Of a stretch of 24,644 nucleotides of DNA, positions 6,436-21,425 are shown in pieces. Numbering within the stretch: the stretch's first letter is position 1; each line of letters starts with the position of its first letter. The notes under the pieces were generated by a model, which was given only the letters and a program-made list of their open reading frames with translations, was not told the DNA's origin and ran no database searches. This DNA is from a virus, in the IMG/VR virus record IMGVR_UViG_3300033148_000736, positions 1 to 24,644 of that record, one strand, 5' to 3'. Both the position numbers and the translations under genes were made by a program.

Positions 6436-6759
6436 ATGACACTATTTTATTCGACTAACACGTGGAGTAGTCAACCACAATCACAACCAACACAACAAAC
6501 CTTAGACCTTTGGAAGCATGTTGCCAAAAAATCTAATTGGAGAATTGTGCAATTACCAAACGGTTTTTATCAAACCGAATACAAAGATCCAGACTGCGAG
6601 TGTAATCCAGAAAAGGATATCTGCTGCGAAAAATGGATAGACGTAACGAGACGCGAAACAATTGAAGGAGCTGAACAAGCTATAGACGCTTCAATTAACC
6701 ACTATGAGAAAAAACTTTCTTATATTCGCGGACCACAAGTCGTTAAGACCTTTAAGTAA
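6436..6759 (+). CDS. Small conserved-looking phage protein with Cys cluster
   Basis: A 107-residue soluble protein of unknown function. It starts at ATG 6436 after an A/C-rich leader without Shine-Dalgarno and ends 28 bases before the chaperonin gene, suggesting shared transcription. The centre (LPNGFYQTEYKD) is followed by four cysteines in a C-x-C-x6-C-C arrangement (C54, C56, C63, C64), which could bind a metal. The C-terminal half (TIEGAEQAIDASINHYEKKL) is predicted helix. The N-terminal 22 residues are Ser/Gln/Thr-rich and probably disordered. I have seen similar small proteins only as hypotheticals in phage genomes. No signal peptide or membrane segment is visible. Confidence 0.75.
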   Translation: MTLFYSTNTWSSQPQSQPTQQTLDLWKHVAKKSNWRIVQLPNGFYQTEYKDPDCECNPEKDICCEKWIDVTRRETIEGAEQAIDASINHYEKKLSYIRGPQVVKTFK

Positions 6760-6787
6760 AATAAATAAAATTTAATCTAATCAAATT

Positions 6788-8359
6788 ATGGACGGAATCG
6801 TCAAAAACCTTAGTTTTGGAAAACAAGCTAAAAACAAGGTATTTAAAGGAATAGAACAACTCACAAAAGCTGTTAGCTCCACGTTAGGGGCTAGCGGCAA
6901 ATGTGTTATCATGGAGGACAACTCTGGTAACCCTATAATAACTAAAGATGGTGTAACTGTTGCTAATTCAGTTATATTAAGAGATCCTGTTGAAAACATG
7001 GGTGCTACGCTTTTAAAAGAAGCAGCACGTAAAACAGTTAAAGAAGCTGGAGACGGAACAACTACAGCTACAGTTTTAGCTCACTCTATAATGAAAACAG
7101 CTTATTTAGAATTAGGTTCTGATAAAAGCTTTAGAGAAATGAAAGATGGTATATCATCTGGAGTTGAGAAAGTTGTAGACTATTTAAAGTCTATTTCTAT
7201 AGCTGTTAAAGGTGATATGATAGACGATATAGCTACTATATCAACAAACAACGATAAAGAGTTGGGTAAACTAATAGCTGATGCTTTTAGAGCTGTAGGC
7301 GAAACAGGTGTGGTCACAATGGAGCCGTCAGACGGTGGTGTGACTAAGGTTGAAATAGTAGAAGGTGTAGAATATAATAAAGGATTTTCACACGCTGAGT
7401 TTATAACAAATAAAGAGAAAAACGTTTCTGAATTAGAAAACGCTTTAGTTCTTTTAATGGATTCAAAAGTAGATTCAATAAGGCAAATACAACCAGTATT
7501 GGAATATGTTATAAAAAACAATAGATCATTACTAATTATTGGCGAAATAGAAGCAGGAGTGCTATCAGCTTTAGTGATGAACAAAAAGAAAGGTAATATT
7601 AAAATAAATGTTATTGAGCCTCCAGCTTTTGGATTAAGAAGAAAAGAAATATTTGGAGATTTATCTTTACTTACAGGGGCTACTGTCATAAATGAAGATT
7701 TAGGAGATGACTTAAGCTCTATACAGGTTGATTATTTAGGTGTTTGCGAAAAATCAACATCTACGCAAGATCAAACGATAATACAAGTAAATGATGTTTC
7801 TGAAGAAGTTGAAGACATTATAGCAACTATAAAAGAAGATTTAAAAAAGAAAAACAAACCTCATATTCAAGTTGGGTTAGAATTAAGATTAGCTAGACTA
7901 AGCGCAAAAGTAGCTGTAGTTAAAATAGGCGCTAATTCTGACATTGAATTAAAAGAAAAAAGCGATAGAGTTGAAGACGCTATTTGTGCTACAAAAGCTG
8001 CCATTAAAGAAGGTATTGTACCAGGAGGAGGTATTGCTTTGTTAAACGCTTCTAATGTTTTAAAACCAAAAAGTATTGGCGAAGAAATATTACTTAAAGC
8101 AATAACAGCGCCTTTCTCAACACTACTAGCAAATGCTGGTGTGGTTTTAACATCTGAACAAAAAAAGCAATTAGAATCTTCTAAAGGCAAAGGGCTAGAT
8201 GTAGTTACAGGAAAAATGGTTAATATGGTTAAGTTTGGTATTATAGATCCTTTATTGGTTACTAAAAGTGCCTTAATTAATGCAGCTTCCGTAGCATCAA
8301 CAATACTATCTACCGATTGTGTAATCAATAACATGAGAATAGATGAAGGCAGTAGGTAG
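6788..8359 (+). CDS. groEL: Phage-encoded chaperonin, GroEL/Cpn60 family
   Basis: A 523-residue group I chaperonin, predicted to form a ring ATPase that encloses and folds proteins. Visible ATP-site motifs are TLGASG (32-37, normally TLGPKG), ITKDGV (51-56; D54 corresponds to E. coli D52), GDGTTTATVLA (88-98; D89 corresponds to D87), PGGG (412-415) and RVEDA (394-398; D397 corresponds to D398). All three catalytic aspartates are therefore kept. The full equatorial-intermediate-apical-intermediate-equatorial order is present, with only a slightly short length (E. coli has 548). The C-terminus ends in NMRIDEGSR and lacks the GGM tail. In the apical groove, by my manual alignment, E. coli Y203 is Glu (E204) and L234 is Gln (Q235). 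The start ATG follows an AT-rich leader. The gene overlaps the GroES-like gene by 17 bases. Likely clients are fibre, capsid or TerL proteins (inference). Confidence 0.95.
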   Translation: MDGIVKNLSFGKQAKNKVFKGIEQLTKAVSSTLGASGKCVIMEDNSGNPIITKDGVTVANSVILRDPVENMGATLLKEAARKTVKEAGDGTTTATVLAHSIMKTAYLELGSDKSFREMKDGISSGVEKVVDYLKSISIAVKGDMIDDIATISTNNDKELGKLIADAFRAVGETGVVTMEPSDGGVTKVEIVEGVEYNKGFSHAEFITNKEKNVSELENALVLLMDSKVDSIRQIQPVLEYVIKNNRSLLIIGEIEAGVLSALVMNKKKGNIKINVIEPPAFGLRRKEIFGDLSLLTGATVINEDLGDDLSSIQVDYLGVCEKSTSTQDQTIIQVNDVSEEVEDIIATIKEDLKKKNKPHIQVGLELRLARLSAKVAVVKIGANSDIELKEKSDRVEDAICATKAAIKEGIVPGGGIALLNASNVLKPKSIGEEILLKAITAPFSTLLANAGVVLTSEQKKQLESSKGKGLDVVTGKMVNMVKFGIIDPLLVTKSALINAASVASTILSTDCVINNMRIDEGSR

Positions 8360-8603
8360 AAATTTAATAATAGAAAAAATAAAAGAAGGAACTACTGAAA
8401 CAAAAGGTGGTTTACTTTTAGCAGGTTTACATAGAGACGATATAAGGTACATTAGAGCAAACGTAGTTGAAATAGGAGACGAAGTTGTTGGATTACAAAA
8501 AAACGACGTTATATACTACGATAGACATGCTGGACACAAGATAGAAATTAACGATAGATCATACCACGTAATTAAGACACAAGATGTGGTTGTTGTTTTA
8601 TGA
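8343..8603 (+). CDS. groES: Short GroES-like co-chaperonin (Cpn10 fold)
   Basis: An 86-residue lid protein predicted to cap the chaperonin ring encoded just upstream. It shows the Cpn10 layout: a first strand RNLIIEKI (6-13), a mobile loop (about 15-32) with GGLLLAG in place of E. coli GGIVLTG, then ANVVEIGDEV, a KNDVIYY segment matching VGDIVIF, and a C-terminal KTQDVVVVL matching the ESDILAIV end. E. coli GroES has 97 residues. The shortfall lies where the beta-hairpin roof would be (NGRILENGEV region), so the lid may be open at the top. The start ATG lies 17 bases inside the end of the chaperonin gene and the stop overlaps the next ATG (ATGA), pointing to translational coupling. The order groEL-groES is the reverse of the bacterial operon. 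Confidence 0.88.
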   Translation: MKAVGRNLIIEKIKEGTTETKGGLLLAGLHRDDIRYIRANVVEIGDEVVGLQKNDVIYYDRHAGHKIEINDRSYHVIKTQDVVVVL

Positions 8604-9043
8604 AAAAGCTAGACGCAGGTAATTTAAAAGATTTAAACTTGCTAAAACATTACCGTATAATACGCAAATGGGCTTGTAAAAACAACAGCTTACGTGAGTC
8701 TGATTTAGAGTTATTAATATATCTTGACTGCATAGATCTTTTTACGAAAAAAGATTTTGAAGCAGGTGTATATTCTTATAGTTGGGATAATAGACGTTGG
8801 TCTAGATTGATAAAAGAAAACTGGATAACTGTTTGGAGAAAAAGAAACAGAACAACACAGACTTATAATATATATAAAGTTTCTTTTAAAGGTAAGCAAT
8901 TAATAAATAGAATTTACAAGATAATGCTAGGAGATGAAAAAATACCTACTAGCTCTAGAAGAAACAAAATAATTAACGGTAAATCTTACATGGATAAGGT
9001 TTTGACTAAATCCATAAAAAACGTAAACAAAGATACATTATGA
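8600..9043 (+). CDS. Possible winged-helix DNA-binding protein
   Basis: A 147-residue, strongly basic protein coupled to the co-chaperonin gene by an ATGA overlap and to the next gene by another 4-base overlap. The N-terminal half is helical (HYRIIRKWACKNN, LRESDLELLIYLDCID). It is followed by a helix around W68-E78 and a basic, Arg-rich hairpin (TVWRKRNRTTQTYNIYKVS), then FKGKQLINRIYKIML. That order of helices, basic hairpin and final T/S-x-KG-K-x-L helix resembles MarR-type winged-helix proteins. It might regulate late genes or bind DNA during packaging. The assignment rests on pattern only and no structure match was tested. Confidence 0.5.
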   Translation: MKKLDAGNLKDLNLLKHYRIIRKWACKNNSLRESDLELLIYLDCIDLFTKKDFEAGVYSYSWDNRRWSRLIKENWITVWRKRNRTTQTYNIYKVSFKGKQLINRIYKIMLGDEKIPTSSRRNKIINGKSYMDKVLTKSIKNVNKDTL

Positions 9044-10815: not shown

Positions 10816-10971
10816 ATGAAATCTAGAGGACTTGGCGACAGCATTGCTAAATTCACACAGAAAACAGGTGTTAAGACTATCGTAGACAGAGTGTCTGATG
10901 GTCTTAACATTAACTGTGGTTGTAATAATAGACAAGAATGGTTTAACGAAAAGTTTCCTTACAGAAGATAA
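10816..10971 (+). CDS. 51-residue basic protein with CGC motif
   Basis: A short gene with ATG at 10816, three bases after the previous stop, and TAA at 10969-10971, one base before the next ATG. The product opens with MKSRGLGDSIAKFTQKTG (helical, basic) and ends CGCNNRQEWFNEKFPYRR. The pattern GLGDxIAKFT...CGC-xx-R-xxx-x-N-x-x-FP is one I know as a recurring small hypothetical in tailed phages, so I consider it real despite its size. The CGC pair may bind metal or a partner. The exact fit between its neighbours also supports it. Function is unknown. Confidence 0.75.
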   Translation: MKSRGLGDSIAKFTQKTGVKTIVDRVSDGLNINCGCNNRQEWFNEKFPYRR

Positions 10972-10972
10972 C

Positions 10973-11338
10973 ATGGCATTTAAAATTAATTCTCCGTTTG
11001 ATTTAAGCAAGATGAGTACATCTGTGTTCGAAAGAGATATGGGAGAGGATCCTGTATTTGCTAGAACACCTAAAAACGGGGTTATCATTATAAACGAAGA
11101 CTTAAAAGATCCAGTAGAATTAGAGAAAACATTAGCTCATGAACTAGTTCACGTTAATCAATATAAAGATGAATTAAAAAATCCAGGTACTGGATTAGAT
11201 TATGAGGTTGATTCTAAAGGAGCTGGTAAAGTAATGTTTAAAGGAAAAGAGTACGACTATTCAGTAATGCAAGCCGGTAAAGGTCCTTGGGAAAAAGACG
11301 CATACGCCGCAGAAAGAAAATTAAAGCAAACAAATTAA
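10973..11338 (+). CDS. Minimal HExxH zinc metallopeptidase-like protein
   Basis: A 121-residue protein. The frame is open further upstream (to a GTG/ATG region near 10898), but that extension would overlap most of the 51-residue gene, so ATG 10973 is preferred. It contains AHELVHVNQY with H56, E57 and H60 (HExxH zinc motif and catalytic Glu). About 47 residues later comes PWEKDAYAAE, where E107 is a good candidate for the third ligand, as in gluzincin-like minimal peptidases. No signal peptide is seen. Possible roles are processing of scaffold or virion proteins or attack on a host protein. The family occurs as a small protein in other phage structural regions; activity is not shown. Confidence 0.75.
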   Translation: MAFKINSPFDLSKMSTSVFERDMGEDPVFARTPKNGVIIINEDLKDPVELEKTLAHELVHVNQYKDELKNPGTGLDYEVDSKGAGKVMFKGKEYDYSVMQAGKGPWEKDAYAAERKLKQTN

Positions 11339-13006: not shown

Positions 13007-13223
13007 TATTAGAAAGATTAGTATTGGGTCTGACTACAAAAATGATGCTATGCATTACTCTGTAGGTCAACAAGTTTATGGTGGCCATGAAATATCACAT
13101 ATACTTTTTGAAGACTCAGATAATTCTTATAATATACATATAAAGAAAAACAACGAGGTATTGCCATGGAAAAAGTTTAACTCTAACATGGCTATATCCG
13201 TTGAGTACGATTTAGAATACTAA
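12996..13223 (+). CDS. 75-residue protein of a recurring phage family, function unknown
   Basis: The start at ATG 12996 is preferred over an upstream ATG at 12966 because it leaves only an 11-base overlap with the coiled-coil gene and begins at the conserved part. The product has a beta-rich layout: ISIGSDYKNDAMHYSVGQ, then SYNIHIKKN, WKKFNSNM and SVEYDLEY. The IGxDYKxxAMHYxVGQ...WKxFN...EYxL pattern is one I have seen in other phage genomes as hypothetical. Its last A is the first base of the next ATG, a one-base overlap that suggests translational coupling. Confidence 0.7.
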   Translation: MTNNIRKISIGSDYKNDAMHYSVGQQVYGGHEISHILFEDSDNSYNIHIKKNNEVLPWKKFNSNMAISVEYDLEY

Positions 13224-13828
13224 TGAAAAGCTTATACGACTTTATAGTTAGACCGGTTGGAAACGAATACGATAACGAAATAGAAATAGGTAATAAAAAA
13301 ATAATACTTAATACTAAAATAGAAAGTTTTAAATTCGTTAACAACATAGCCGAGGTTGTAGAAATTCCTAAAGCATTTAAAACACCTATAAATAAAGGTG
13401 ACTTCATAGTTATACATCACAATGTTTTTCGCACGTTCTACGACATGAAAGGTGTTAAGAAAAAAAGTAGATCATCATTTGTTGATGGTTTATATTTTTG
13501 TGCACTAGATCAAGTGTATCTTTATAAGAAAAAAGACAAATGGAAATCTATAAACAATAGATGTTTTATAAAACCACTAGTTAATAAAGATGGTTTAGAA
13601 GTGAGTAAAGAGCAAAAACTTATTGGTATACTTAAAATAGGTAATAGCTCCTTAGAAGCTCTAGGAATAAGCGAGGGTGACACTGTAGGCTACACGCCTT
13701 ATGGTGAATATGACTTCATTGTAGATAAAGAGCGGTTGTATTGTATGAAATCAAATGATATTGTAATTAAGTATGGAGATCAACAAAACCAAAAGGAATA
13801 TAATCCAAGCTGGGCAAGTAGCAGTTGA
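13223..13828 (+). CDS. Tandem GroES-like (double Cpn10) protein, putative
   Basis: A 201-residue soluble protein that I read as two consecutive GroES-type beta barrels. Repeat 1 (about 5-104): DFIVRPVG, NKKIILNT, AEVVEIPK, INKGDFIVIHHNVFR, then DQVYLYKK. Repeat 2 (about 113-185): CFIKPLVN, IGILKIGN, ISEGDTVGYTPYGEYDF, then ERLYCMKSNDIVIKYG. The second half follows the end of E. coli GroES closely (GEVLAVGN ... VKVGDIVIFNDGYG ... EVLIMSESDILAIV). A tandem Cpn10 is known in chloroplast Cpn20. It lies just before the terminase genes, about 5 kb from groEL. It may be a second co-chaperonin or a virion or assembly factor that reuses the fold. No GG-[IVL]3 mobile loop as clear as that of the 86-residue protein is visible, so partnership with GroEL is uncertain. 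Confidence 0.55.
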   Translation: MKSLYDFIVRPVGNEYDNEIEIGNKKIILNTKIESFKFVNNIAEVVEIPKAFKTPINKGDFIVIHHNVFRTFYDMKGVKKKSRSSFVDGLYFCALDQVYLYKKKDKWKSINNRCFIKPLVNKDGLEVSKEQKLIGILKIGNSSLEALGISEGDTVGYTPYGEYDFIVDKERLYCMKSNDIVIKYGDQQNQKEYNPSWASSS

Positions 13829-14048
13829 GGAGTTAATAAAAGTAGCTAAAGAAGCTATTGTTGATTCTGATGATGATATATCAGCAGATAGACTAAAAAA
13901 CGCAGCGGCTACAAAAAAGTTAGCTATATTTGATGCTTTTGAAATATTAAATAGAATACAGGAAGAAGAGGACTTGTTAAATGAAAAACCTAAAAAAGTT
14001 AAAGAAGAAACAGCTTTTAAAGGTTTTGCTGAAGGTAGATCTAGATAA
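13773..14048 (+). CDS. terS: Small terminase subunit candidate
   Basis: A 91-residue, helical protein (RNIIQAGQVAVEELIKVAKEA, then KNAAATKKLAIFDAFEILNRIQ) that ends one base into the TerL start codon. Its place directly upstream of TerL, small size and helical content match a small terminase subunit or a TerL-linked packaging helper. No clear N-terminal helix-turn-helix is visible, which weakens the call. The only ATG (13773) gives a 56-base overlap with the tandem-GroES gene, larger than the other overlaps here. Confidence 0.5.
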   Translation: MEINKTKRNIIQAGQVAVEELIKVAKEAIVDSDDDISADRLKNAAATKKLAIFDAFEILNRIQEEEDLLNEKPKKVKEETAFKGFAEGRSR

Positions 14049-16261
14049 TGTACGAGCAAACTCTATATAAAGTATTAAAAAACTATGTTGATTCTAAAAC
14101 TTTAAATCACAAGAACAAACATAAGAAATGGGAATATGGCTACAATGAGGAATATGACATAGTAGTAATAAGTAAGACAGGTCAAATAGGAGAGGTATAT
14201 GAAATACAGAATCTTAAAATAGCTCTGCCAAAAGAAAATGAAGTCGTAAAGTTTGAAAACAATAAGTGGAATTATTCTGAATACCCTAAGCAATTAAAAA
14301 AAATTAAATCTGTATTCGACTGGGAAGAATATCCATTAGATTTTAAAGAAAAATGGTATGACTATATTGACAAAGAATTTACTAGACGTGAAGAAGGTTT
14401 TTGGTTTGTTAACAAAGACATTCCTACTTATATCACTGGTACTCATTACATGTACTTGCAGTGGTCCAAGATTGATGTTGGGAAACCAGACTTTAGGGAA
14501 TCAAATAGATTATTCTACATCTTTTGGGAGGCTTGCAAAGCAGACCCAAGATCATATGGAATGTGCTATCTTAAAAACCGTAGATCAGGATTCTCATTTA
14601 TGTCCTCAGCTGAATCGGTCAACCTTGCTACAATATCCACGGATTCACGGTTCGGCATATTGTCCAAATCTGGTCCCGATGCTAAAAAGATGTTCACAGA
14701 TAAAGTTGTACCAATTTCCGTTAACTACCCTTTCTTTTTTAAACCGATCCAAGATGGTATGGACAGGCCAAAAACCGAGCTTGCTTACAGAGTTCCTGCT
14801 TCTAAATTCACCCGTAGAAAGCTTGACGCCAATACGAAAGTACAAGAAATTACCGGTCTTGACACCACTATCGACTGGAAGAACACAGGGGATAACTCCT
14901 ATGATGGAGAGAAACTCAAGCTCCTCGTTCATGATGAATCAGGTAAATGGGAAAGACCAAACAACATCCTCAATAACTGGAGGGTTACGAAAACAACATT
15001 AAGATTAGGTAGTAAGGTCATAGGTAAGTGCATGATGGGAAGTACATCAAACGCTTTAGATAAAGGAGGAGATAATTTTAAAAACCTATATAACGCTTCA
15101 GATGTTACAAAAAGAAACGCCAATGGGCAAACTAGCTCGGGACTATATTCTTTGTTCATACCTATGGAATGGAATTACGAAGGATACATTGATTCTTATG
15201 GCATACCTGTCTTCGACACGCCTAAAAAAGCTGTAAAAGATCCGCATGGATCTGATATAAAAATAGGTGTAATTGAATACTGGCAAAATGAAGTAAATGG
15301 TTTAAAAGAAGATCAAGATGGTTTAAACGAATTTTACCGTCAGTTTCCAAGAACGGAAGAACACGCGTTTAGAGATGAGGCTAAATCATCTTTATTTAAT
15401 CTTACTAAAATATACCAACAAGTAGATTGGAATGCTGATTTAAAAAACAGCGGAATAATAACACAAGGCAATTTCCAATGGGTTAATGGTGTTAAAGATA
15501 CTAAAGTTGTCTTCATGCCTAGCAAGCAGGGTAGATTTTTTGTATCCTGGATACCATCTGTTGAAATGCAGAATAGTGTTATAAAGAAAAATGGACTTAA
15601 ATGGCCTGGTAATGATTACATGGGGGCTTTTGGCTGTGATAGTTACGATATATCTGGAACTGTAGATAGAAGAGGATCTAATGGGGCTTTACATGGTTTA
15701 ACTAAGTTTAACATGGATAACGTTCCATCAAATCATTTTTTCCTAGAATATATATCTAGACCTCAAACAGCTGAAATATTTTTTGAAGATGTATTAATGG
15801 CTTGTGTTTTTTATGGCATGCCAATACTTGCTGAAAACAATAAACCTAGACTATTGTACTATTTTAAACGTAGAGGCTATAGAGGTTATTCTATAAACAG
15901 ACCAGATAAAAAATACAGTAAACTATCAACTACAGAAAGAGAGATAGGTGGAATACCAAACTCTAGTGAAGACATAAAGCAAGCTCATGCTGCAGCTATA
16001 GAGTCTTACATAGAACATCATGTTGGTTTAAAAGATGATGGTAACTATGGCGATGTTTATTTTCAAAGAACTCTTGAGGATTGGGCTAAATTTAATATAA
16101 ACAATAGAACATCACATGATGCATCTATAAGTTCAGGCTTAGCTATTATGGCCTGTAATAAAAATAAGTATAAACCAAACCCAACATTCAAAAGACCTTC
16201 TTACAATTTAGGTTTTAAAAGATATAATAATAAAGGTACATTGTCAAAAATAATTGAATAA
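14048..16261 (+). CDS. terL: Terminase large subunit, packaging ATPase-nuclease
   Basis: A 737-residue motor protein that cuts DNA and pumps it through the portal. The ATPase half has an atypical Walker A, KNRRSGFS (176-183), of the K-x-R-R-x-G-x-S kind seen in crAss-like phages, and a Walker B, LKLLVHDE (D296, E297). The nuclease half has a RuvC-like set: FGCDSYD (D531), LAENN (E596) and SHDAS (D691). The N-terminal 100 residues are an extra region rich in Lys, Trp and Tyr before the ATPase core. The gene directly abuts the portal gene. Bases 14521-14940 are visibly richer in G+C (about 43 percent by hand count) than the flanks (30-38 percent), with C-ending codons and cgg arginine, hinting at a recombined segment. 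Confidence 0.92.
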   Translation: MYEQTLYKVLKNYVDSKTLNHKNKHKKWEYGYNEEYDIVVISKTGQIGEVYEIQNLKIALPKENEVVKFENNKWNYSEYPKQLKKIKSVFDWEEYPLDFKEKWYDYIDKEFTRREEGFWFVNKDIPTYITGTHYMYLQWSKIDVGKPDFRESNRLFYIFWEACKADPRSYGMCYLKNRRSGFSFMSSAESVNLATISTDSRFGILSKSGPDAKKMFTDKVVPISVNYPFFFKPIQDGMDRPKTELAYRVPASKFTRRKLDANTKVQEITGLDTTIDWKNTGDNSYDGEKLKLLVHDESGKWERPNNILNNWRVTKTTLRLGSKVIGKCMMGSTSNALDKGGDNFKNLYNASDVTKRNANGQTSSGLYSLFIPMEWNYEGYIDSYGIPVFDTPKKAVKDPHGSDIKIGVIEYWQNEVNGLKEDQDGLNEFYRQFPRTEEHAFRDEAKSSLFNLTKIYQQVDWNADLKNSGIITQGNFQWVNGVKDTKVVFMPSKQGRFFVSWIPSVEMQNSVIKKNGLKWPGNDYMGAFGCDSYDISGTVDRRGSNGALHGLTKFNMDNVPSNHFFLEYISRPQTAEIFFEDVLMACVFYGMPILAENNKPRLLYYFKRRGYRGYSINRPDKKYSKLSTTEREIGGIPNSSEDIKQAHAAAIESYIEHHVGLKDDGNYGDVYFQRTLEDWAKFNINNRTSHDASISSGLAIMACNKNKYKPNPTFKRPSYNLGFKRYNNKGTLSKIIE

Positions 16262-19946: not shown

Positions 19947-21425
19947 ATGGCAATTGCTCCGCAATTTGGTTCAATCGTACCAAGTCAACAACAACAAACG
20001 TTGGCAAACAACTACCTAAATTTTACAGGTGGACAAAACGATTTCTCACAACAATACCTACCAGAGCTTTACGAAGCAGAGGTAGAAAGATATGGTAACA
20101 GAACGTTATCAGGATTTTTAAGAATGGTTGGCGCTGAAATGCCAATGACATCTGATCAAGTAATTTGGTCTGAACAAAATAGATTACACATTGCTTACAA
20201 CGACTGTACTTCAGCTTCTGGAGCGGGAACAATTACAATTCCTGTTACAGCTGCGGGTGCTGCTGTGCCAATTGTAAACGTAATTTCTCCAGGTGCAACA
20301 ATAGTTGTAATGGATCAATTCGGTGGTGAAGCAAAATGTTTCGTTAGAACTTCTGACACTCGCTTAGCAGGTGGAGGAGGTAATCCAGGACAGTTAGTTG
20401 TAGAGCCTTATGGTTTCGCTAATTTAGCTGCTGCTGGTATCGCTGACGGTGCTGGAAAAAAGATATTTGTTTACGGTTCTGATTTTCAGAAAGGAACTTC
20501 AACTGCAAACGCAGCTGTAGGAGCAAATACTTACGCTGCTAACGCTAACCCTATGGTTACTGTAGATCCTAGCTTTACTCAATTTTCAAACTCTCCAATA
20601 ATCATTAGAAGTACTTATACTATTAATGGTTCTGACACTGCTCAGATTGGATGGGTAGAAGTTGCTACTGAAGATGGAACTGGAGGATACTTATGGTATT
20701 TAAAAGCTGAATCTGAAACTCGTTTACGTTTTGAAGATTACTTAGAAATGGCAATGGTTGAAGGAGAATTAAGTGCTGGTGGACCTGCTGCATTAACAAA
20801 TCAAAGTGGTGGTTCTCAAGGTTTATTCTCTGCTATCAGTCAGAGAGGTAATGTACAAACTGGATTTACAGCTGCTGCTGGATTAGATGCTTTTGATGCA
20901 ATACTTAAAAACTTAGATACTCAAGGAGCTATTGAAGAAAACATGTTATTCTTAAACAGAGCTACTGCTCTTGATTTTGATGATATGCTTGCTTCTATCT
21001 CAGGTGGATTCGCTGGAGGTACTGCTTTTGGATTATTTGAAAATTCTGAAGAAATGGCATTAAATTTAGGTTTCTCTGGTTTCAGAAGAGGTTCTTATGA
21101 CTTCTACAAAACTGACTGGAAATACTTAAACGATGCTTCTACTCGTGGAGCTATTGCTGGACCTGCATCTATTGAAGGTGTGTTAGTACCAGCTGGAACT
21201 TCTACGGTATATGATCAAATCTTAGGAACAAATATTAGAAGACCATTCTTACACGTGCGTTATAGAGCTTCTCAAGCTGATGACAGACGTATGAAGTCTT
21301 GGTTAACTGGTTCTGTAGGAGGTGCTTTTACTTCATCTTTGGATGCAATGGAAGTAAACTTCTTATCAGAAAGATGTTTAGTTACACAAGCTGCGAACAA
21401 CTTCGTATTGTTCAAAGGAATCTAA
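19947..21425 (+). CDS. Major capsid protein, HK97-like fold
   Basis: A 492-residue protein starting at ATG 19947 behind the leader attaaaaattaaaatt. Position after the scaffold, length, and sequence pattern (AEVERYGNRTLSGFLRMVGAE near the N-terminus; LRFEDYLEMAMVEGE in the middle; a long central helix with LDAFDAILKNLDTQGAIEENM; the final beta region with DDRRMKSWLTG) fit the capsid proteins of crAss-like and related podoviruses. The region 90-220 is a beta-rich, Gly/Ala/Val-rich segment, likely an extended surface domain. Its codon use is narrower than that of neighbours (many gct, gga, act), as expected for a very highly expressed gene. A strong hairpin follows the stop. Confidence 0.88.
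   Translation: MAIAPQFGSIVPSQQQQTLANNYLNFTGGQNDFSQQYLPELYEAEVERYGNRTLSGFLRMVGAEMPMTSDQVIWSEQNRLHIAYNDCTSASGAGTITIPVTAAGAAVPIVNVISPGATIVVMDQFGGEAKCFVRTSDTRLAGGGGNPGQLVVEPYGFANLAAAGIADGAGKKIFVYGSDFQKGTSTANAAVGANTYAANANPMVTVDPSFTQFSNSPIIIRSTYTINGSDTAQIGWVEVATEDGTGGYLWYLKAESETRLRFEDYLEMAMVEGELSAGGPAALTNQSGGSQGLFSAISQRGNVQTGFTAAAGLDAFDAILKNLDTQGAIEENMLFLNRATALDFDDMLASISGGFAGGTAFGLFENSEEMALNLGFSGFRRGSYDFYKTDWKYLNDASTRGAIAGPASIEGVLVPAGTSTVYDQILGTNIRRPFLHVRYRASQADDRRMKSWLTGSVGGAFTSSLDAMEVNFLSERCLVTQAANNFVLFKGI

What the first reader, a model, noticed from the sequence alone, without database searches (positions are those of the whole stretch)
6788..8603. Complete phage chaperonin operon in reversed, overlapping order
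groEL precedes groES, with the groES start 17 bases inside groEL. Bacterial operons are normally groES-groEL with no overlap. All three ATP-site aspartates are kept and the ORFs are intact, so the system is probably active. It sits between fibre and head genes, suggesting a phage-specific folding machine for virion proteins rather than a passively captured host operon.
Basis: partly seen in the sequence, partly recalled or inferred. Interest (0 to 1): 0.72.

Follow-up and report, generated by a model that had tools for sequence, protein, structure and literature searches.

The report
Old phage chaperonin pair, reversed order
A marine bacteria-infecting virus carries its own protein-folding machine (GroEL and its lid GroES) in an order opposite to that of bacteria; this is real and ancient but shared by a large, already-known group of viruses, and the less expected part is a second, apparently double-length lid gene nearby.

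Summary
In detail: groEL (6788-8359) precedes groES (8343-8603) with a 17-base overlap, both intact, with D52, D87 and D398 kept. It is not an assembly artefact: 75 IMG/VR contigs show the same order. It is not unusual for phages: cultured Elemovirus, podovirus ctfjg026 and Maribacter phage Panino have groEL-groES too, while 73 of 80 bacterial loci have groES-groEL and none is reversed. On the GroEL tree the window clade lies outside all sampled bacteria; a grouping with Bacteroidota is rejected (AU p = 0.0008). So this is an old phage-resident chaperonin, not a captured host operon, and it is under purifying selection. Its GroES lacks the dome 'roof' hairpin, as T4 gp31 does. The overlap is ordinary (8 of 27 neighbouring pairs overlap). 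That it folds virion proteins is plausible but untested. It is conserved across related phages, including one (phi19:3) that has both co-chaperonins but no GroEL. New member of a known kind; the single-plus-double lid pair is the part worth testing.

The parts
6436..6759 (+). uncharacterised ORF, 107 aa, immediately upstream of groEL
   Evidence: found upstream of groEL in every window-clade locus listed (50-100% id); no family match
6788..8359 (+). groEL, group I chaperonin, 523 aa
   Evidence: Pfam PF00118 and phrog_5725; D52/D87/D398 kept; dN/dS 0.03-0.19
8343..8603 (+). groES, single-domain co-chaperonin, 86 aa, without roof hairpin; start lies 17 nt inside groEL
   Evidence: Pfam PF00166; alignment and AF2 model show no roof hairpin; PDB matches are Cpn10/GroES
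8600..9043 (+). uncharacterised ORF (phrog_17028), 147 aa, overlaps groES by 4 nt
   Evidence: near groES throughout the window clade, and on the opposite strand next to groES in ctfjg026; weaker match next to groES in Elemovirus
13223..13828 (+). second co-chaperonin, 201 aa, probably two GroES-like domains (Cpn20-like), just upstream of terL
   Evidence: phrog_13932 'co-chaperonin GroES' E 4.7e-20; C half matches GroES profile; AF2 model best PDB match is Cpn20 over its full length
14048..16261 (+). terminase large subunit (context)
   Evidence: phrog_6681 E 1.1e-163
19947..21425 (+). virion structural protein, candidate major capsid protein, 52.3 kDa (candidate client)
   Evidence: phrog_13704 E 5.3e-86; mass

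Best explanation
This is a long-resident, functional phage chaperonin. GroEL forms an ATP-driven ring; GroES, encoded right after it and overlapping it, is its lid. The reversed order is an inherited trait of one old phage GroEL lineage, not a recent rearrangement of a host operon. The lid lacks the roof hairpin, leaving the dome open at the top as in T4 gp31. The GroEL has changed its client/lid-binding face and its ring-ring contact residues, so the pair has probably become specific for phage clients, most likely late proteins such as the 52 kDa capsid candidate. A second, probably double-domain co-chaperonin beside terL likely acts in the same machine or on the host's GroEL. Shown: sequence, order, conservation, selection, phylogeny, missing roof. 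Inferred: ATPase and folding activity, altered specificity, virion clients, role of the second lid.
For: Intact ORFs, ATP site kept. dN/dS well below 1 in groEL (0.03-0.19) and groES (0.14-0.24). Same order in 75/75 IMG/VR relatives with a groES, 13/13 Elemovirus-type, 78/80 ctfjg026-type, and Panino. Window clade separate from bacteria; union with Bacteroidota rejected. Roof segment about 5 residues against 9 in Flavobacterium and 14 in Salmonella; gp31 also lacks roof loops, one of the differences thought to let it fold the 56 kDa gp23 (PMC6318259). Apical positions 203 and 234 are polar (E and Q) instead of Y and L, and there is no GGM tail.
Against: No expression, binding or folding data. 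Position near late genes is not universal: in Callevirus groES/groEL sit among replication genes. Flavobacterial GroES already has a shortened roof, so the difference from the host is smaller than from E. coli. The relatives Gundel and phi19:3 show no GroEL, so capsid folding in this type of phage does not always need one of its own.
Confidence: 0.62

Rival explanations
1. General proteostasis aid: the phage chaperonin supplements or replaces the host's GroEL for all proteins during infection (stress, cold, overload), with no special link to virion proteins.
For: GroEL is variably present among relatives; in Callevirus it lies among replication genes; Bacteroides phage GroELs look like later captures of host genes.
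Against: In the window clade groEL/groES stay upstream of the packaging genes in the long loci read; the apical face has diverged where a generalist keeps it hydrophobic.
Confidence: 0.27
2. The proteins no longer fold clients and have another role, for example structural, regulatory or as decoys for the host's GroEL.
For: Polar apical residues at 203 and 234, altered inter-ring residues.
Against: ATP site kept across the clade and partner groES always retained beside it, both under purifying selection.
Confidence: 0.08
3. A recently captured host groES-groEL operon that was rearranged in the phage.
For: Hosts of related cultured phages are Flavobacteriia, whose GroEL is about 41% identical to this one.
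Against: The window clade (100/99) lies outside a group that holds all bacteria (100/98); AU test p = 0.0008 against union with Bacteroidota.
Confidence: 0.02
4. Assembly chimera or mis-assembly at 6760-8610.
For: None found.
Against: Single alignments spanning 6600-8800 in many other contigs; same genes and order in 75 contigs.
Confidence: 0.01

Closest known systems
Elemovirus (Flavobacterium phage vB_FspP_elemo) and podovirus ctfjg026 groEL-groES
   Same: groEL before groES, same strand, touching or nearly so; related TerL, portal and second co-chaperonin
   Different: GroEL only about 36-39% identical; elemo genes are on the strand opposite to the packaging genes; overlap 1 nt or gap 4 nt instead of 17
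Marine virioplankton GroELs (Nishimura 2017, PMC5332604; Marine 2017, ISME J, not held here)
   Same: GroEL in 36 environmental genomes of the phi38:1-type Flavobacteriaceae phage group. From memory, not checked: Marine 2017 reports that the order of large and small subunit genes follows GroEL phylogeny
   Different: this window is one more member; no difference in kind
T4 gp31
   Same: phage co-chaperonin without roof loops (PMC6318259); fold match 1g31
   Different: gp31 works with host GroEL; here GroEL is phage-encoded; no close sequence relation (10% identity in the fold match)
phiEL / OBP chaperonins
   Same: phage-encoded GroEL
   Different: those need no co-chaperonin (PMC5934643); here groES is always next to groEL
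Chloroplast/apicoplast Cpn20
   Same: two GroES-like domains in one chain; in chloroplasts found together with a single-domain Cpn10 (PMC5780408); best PDB match of the 13223-13828 model
   Different: phage gene, 14-16% identity in the fold match; N-terminal domain only weakly supported by sequence; probably an independent fusion

Membership tests
Group I chaperonin (GroEL/Cpn60) | Cpn60 sequence family over full length | tested here: met
   PF00118 E 3.5e-55; PDB GroELs aligned over residues 6-516
Group I chaperonin (GroEL/Cpn60) | ATP-site D52, D87, D398 and the DGTTT motif | tested here: met
Group I chaperonin (GroEL/Cpn60) | hydrophobic apical client/GroES-binding residues (199, 203, 204, 234, 237, 259, 263, 264) | tested here: inconclusive
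   six of eight hydrophobic; 203 is E, 234 is Q
Group I chaperonin (GroEL/Cpn60) | double ring through inter-ring contacts (K105/E434, R452/E461) | tested here: inconclusive
   residues not kept, but the alignment is gappy there; ring number cannot be read from sequence
Group I chaperonin (GroEL/Cpn60) | ATP-dependent folding with a co-chaperonin | not testable with these tools
   needs protein
GroES/Cpn10 | Cpn10 family and fold | tested here: met
   PF00166 above cut-off; AF2 model matches Cpn10 structures
GroES/Cpn10 | mobile loop with GG-hydrophobic tripeptide | tested here: met
   TKGGLLLAG aligns with SAGGIVLTG
GroES/Cpn10 | roof beta-hairpin closing the dome | tested here: not met
   about 5 residues instead of 14; no strands there in the model. 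Not essential for the family: gp31 lacks it too
T4 gp31-type co-chaperonin | no roof loops | tested here: met
T4 gp31-type co-chaperonin | acts on the host GroEL | not testable with these tools
   here a phage GroEL is present
Cpn20-type double co-chaperonin (13223-13828) | C-terminal GroES-like domain | tested here: met
   HHalign probability 95.7%; phi19:3 homologue above the Pfam cut-off
Cpn20-type double co-chaperonin (13223-13828) | N-terminal GroES-like domain | tested here: inconclusive
   model matches Cpn20 over 205 columns, TM 0.52/0.54. By sequence only phi19:3 (13.9 bits) and elemo (10.7 bits) exceed the best of 1000 shuffles (8.5); the window's own N half does not (2.4)
Cpn20-type double co-chaperonin (13223-13828) | co-chaperonin activity | not testable with these tools
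   needs protein

The most novel reading that the evidence does not exclude
These phages build a mixed lid from a single-domain roofless GroES and a double-domain GroES (Cpn20-like), as chloroplasts do with Cpn10 and Cpn20, tuned for large phage clients. The pair of lids is the conserved core and the phage GroEL is an optional addition: phi19:3 carries both lids and no GroEL, so its lids would cap the host's GroEL.
Probability: 0.25. Interest if true: 0.65.

Novelty: new member of a known kind. Interest (0 to 1): 0.36.

Why it matters
It shows that a phage lineage has kept its own GroEL/GroES long enough to diverge from all sampled bacteria, with gene order as a marker of that lineage. If the second gene is a true double co-chaperonin, double lids, described in a review read here as unique to chloroplasts (PMC5780408), exist in phages too and are common there (at least 591 IMG/VR stretches matched). 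Cultured phages with GroEL (Elemovirus, phi38:1) and without (phi19:3) make the question of why phages bring lids, chaperonins or both directly testable.

Tried and rejected
Chimera: rejected by spanning alignments. Host capture: rejected by tree and AU test. Meaning of the 17-nt overlap: dropped, since overlaps are common in the window (8 of 27) and vary between 17, 4 and 1 nt within the clade. Close GroEL on plasmids: none at E 1e-120. GroEL from Panino as query found no IMG/VR relatives. Single-ring reading from inter-ring residues: left open because that loop aligns poorly. The idea that the second co-chaperonin depends on a phage GroEL was dropped when phi19:3 turned out to have it without GroEL. 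A description of a phage double GroES: none found in the held library; Marine 2017 is not held.

Full report
OBSERVATION. The window carries groEL at 6788-8359 and groES at 8343-8603, both on the + strand, both intact, sharing 17 bases. Family searches confirm both. The three ATP-site aspartates are present. The window is itself a 24,644-base virus record. The overlap is not remarkable: 8 of 27 neighbouring + strand ORF pairs in the window overlap.

NOT A CHIMERA. 75 IMG/VR contigs with a GroEL at least 58% identical have groES directly downstream, with an overlap of 17, 4 or 1 nt. Many contigs align to the window without a break through 6600-8800. The ORFs upstream (6436-6759) and downstream (8600-9043) of the pair are also conserved across the clade, so four genes form a stable block; in a few loci one more gene seems to lie between groES and the 8600 homologue.

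GENE ORDER SURVEY. Of 80 bacterial loci with a long enough groEL, 73 have groES upstream of groEL, 7 have no groES nearby and none is reversed. Among phages, groEL-groES is found in 98 of 99 window-clade loci (some contigs counted twice because two searches fetched them), 13 of 13 Elemovirus-type, 78 of 80 ctfjg026-type (often with other DNA in between) and in Maribacter phage Panino. groES-groEL is found in Immutovirus, Callevirus and Bacteroides phage SJC03. Annotated public genomes already show the reversed order.

PHYLOGENY. In a tree of 90 GroELs (quick method) nearly all groEL-groES phages fall in one group outside the bacteria; gene order needs two changes, because one long-branched contig (L385, reversed) sits among Bacteroidota. 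In a careful tree of 72, from which 18 rows, mostly long-branched and including L385 and Panino, were removed, the reversed-order phages lie on one side of a branch (support 88/84; 91% of bootstrap trees) and order needs one change. That branch is not strongly supported and the root is unknown, so a single origin is likely, not proven. The firm result is that the window clade (100/99) lies outside a group that holds all the bacteria (100/98), and that forcing it together with Bacteroidota is rejected (AU p = 0.0008). By contrast the Bacteroides phage GroELs nest within Bacteroidales, and that of Vibrio phage Va1 within Gammaproteobacteria: these look like separate later captures.

SELECTION AND FUNCTION. 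dN/dS is 0.03-0.19 for groEL and 0.14-0.24 for groES, so both are maintained as proteins; for the more distant pairs dS is above 1 and the ratios are rough. The GroES has about 5 residues where Salmonella has 14 and Flavobacterium 9 in the roof hairpin, and the AF2 model (mean pLDDT 78) shows no strands there. T4 gp31 also lacks roof loops, one of the differences thought to let it fold the 56 kDa gp23 (PMC6318259). The window's candidate capsid protein is 52.3 kDa. GroEL shows E and Q at positions 203 and 234, where bacteria have Y and L, has lost the GGM tail and does not keep the known inter-ring residues, though that loop aligns poorly. These changes fit a specialised pair but do not show one.

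SECOND CO-CHAPERONIN. ORF 13223-13828 (201 aa), upstream of terL, matches phrog_13932 'co-chaperonin GroES'. Its C-terminal half is GroES-like by profile comparison (95.7%). Its AF2 model (mean pLDDT 78) best matches chloroplast Cpn20, a double-GroES protein, over its full length, and a separately predicted phage model, phi18:3 cpn10, also over its full length. Sequence support for the N-terminal half is weak: two relatives exceed 1000 shuffles, the window's own N half does not. It is therefore probably, not certainly, a double co-chaperonin. It lies near terL in the window clade, ctfjg026, Elemovirus and phi38:1, and two genes away in phi19:3. At least 591 IMG/VR stretches encode relatives. 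'Chaperonin cpn10' is already listed as a core protein of Pervagoviridae (PMC8776804). phi19:3 has a single GroES (gp82) and this protein (gp101) but no GroEL detectable by tblastn or profile; in Gundel none of the three was found. In chloroplasts single- and double-domain co-chaperonins combine into seven-domain lids (PMC5780408); whether phages do the same is an open, testable idea.

VERDICT. Real, intact, ancient and conserved; ordinary as a kind, since phage GroEL/GroES and this gene order are already present in annotated phages, and, from memory and not checked here, Marine and colleagues in 2017 linked gene order to GroEL phylogeny. The unexpected part is the second, probably double, co-chaperonin.

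Noticed in passing
window 13223-13828: Second co-chaperonin gene beside terL, probably two GroES-like domains (Cpn20-like); an HHN motif in the N-terminal half is invariant in the aligned relatives.
   Followed up: yes
L486:32116-32370 and L487:7085-7687 (Cellulophaga phage phi19:3): Both a single and a double co-chaperonin but no detectable GroEL in this complete genome.
   Followed up: partly
window 8600-9043; L080:12224-12700 (-): phrog_17028 protein near groES across the clade; in ctfjg026 it is on the opposite strand, annotated 'repressor protein' and weakly matches a transcriptional regulator family. Possibly a regulator of the chaperonin genes.
   Followed up: partly
L264-L343 (ctfjg026-type contigs): Between groEL and groES there is often an insert of 0.1 to 1.9 kb, yet the order is kept.
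   Followed up: no
window 10898-11338: Weak match to IrrE/M78-type metallopeptidase with a HELVH motif, below the Pfam cut-off.
   Followed up: no
L385: Phage contig with reversed order whose long-branched GroEL sits among Bacteroidota in the quick tree; possible independent reversal.
   Followed up: no
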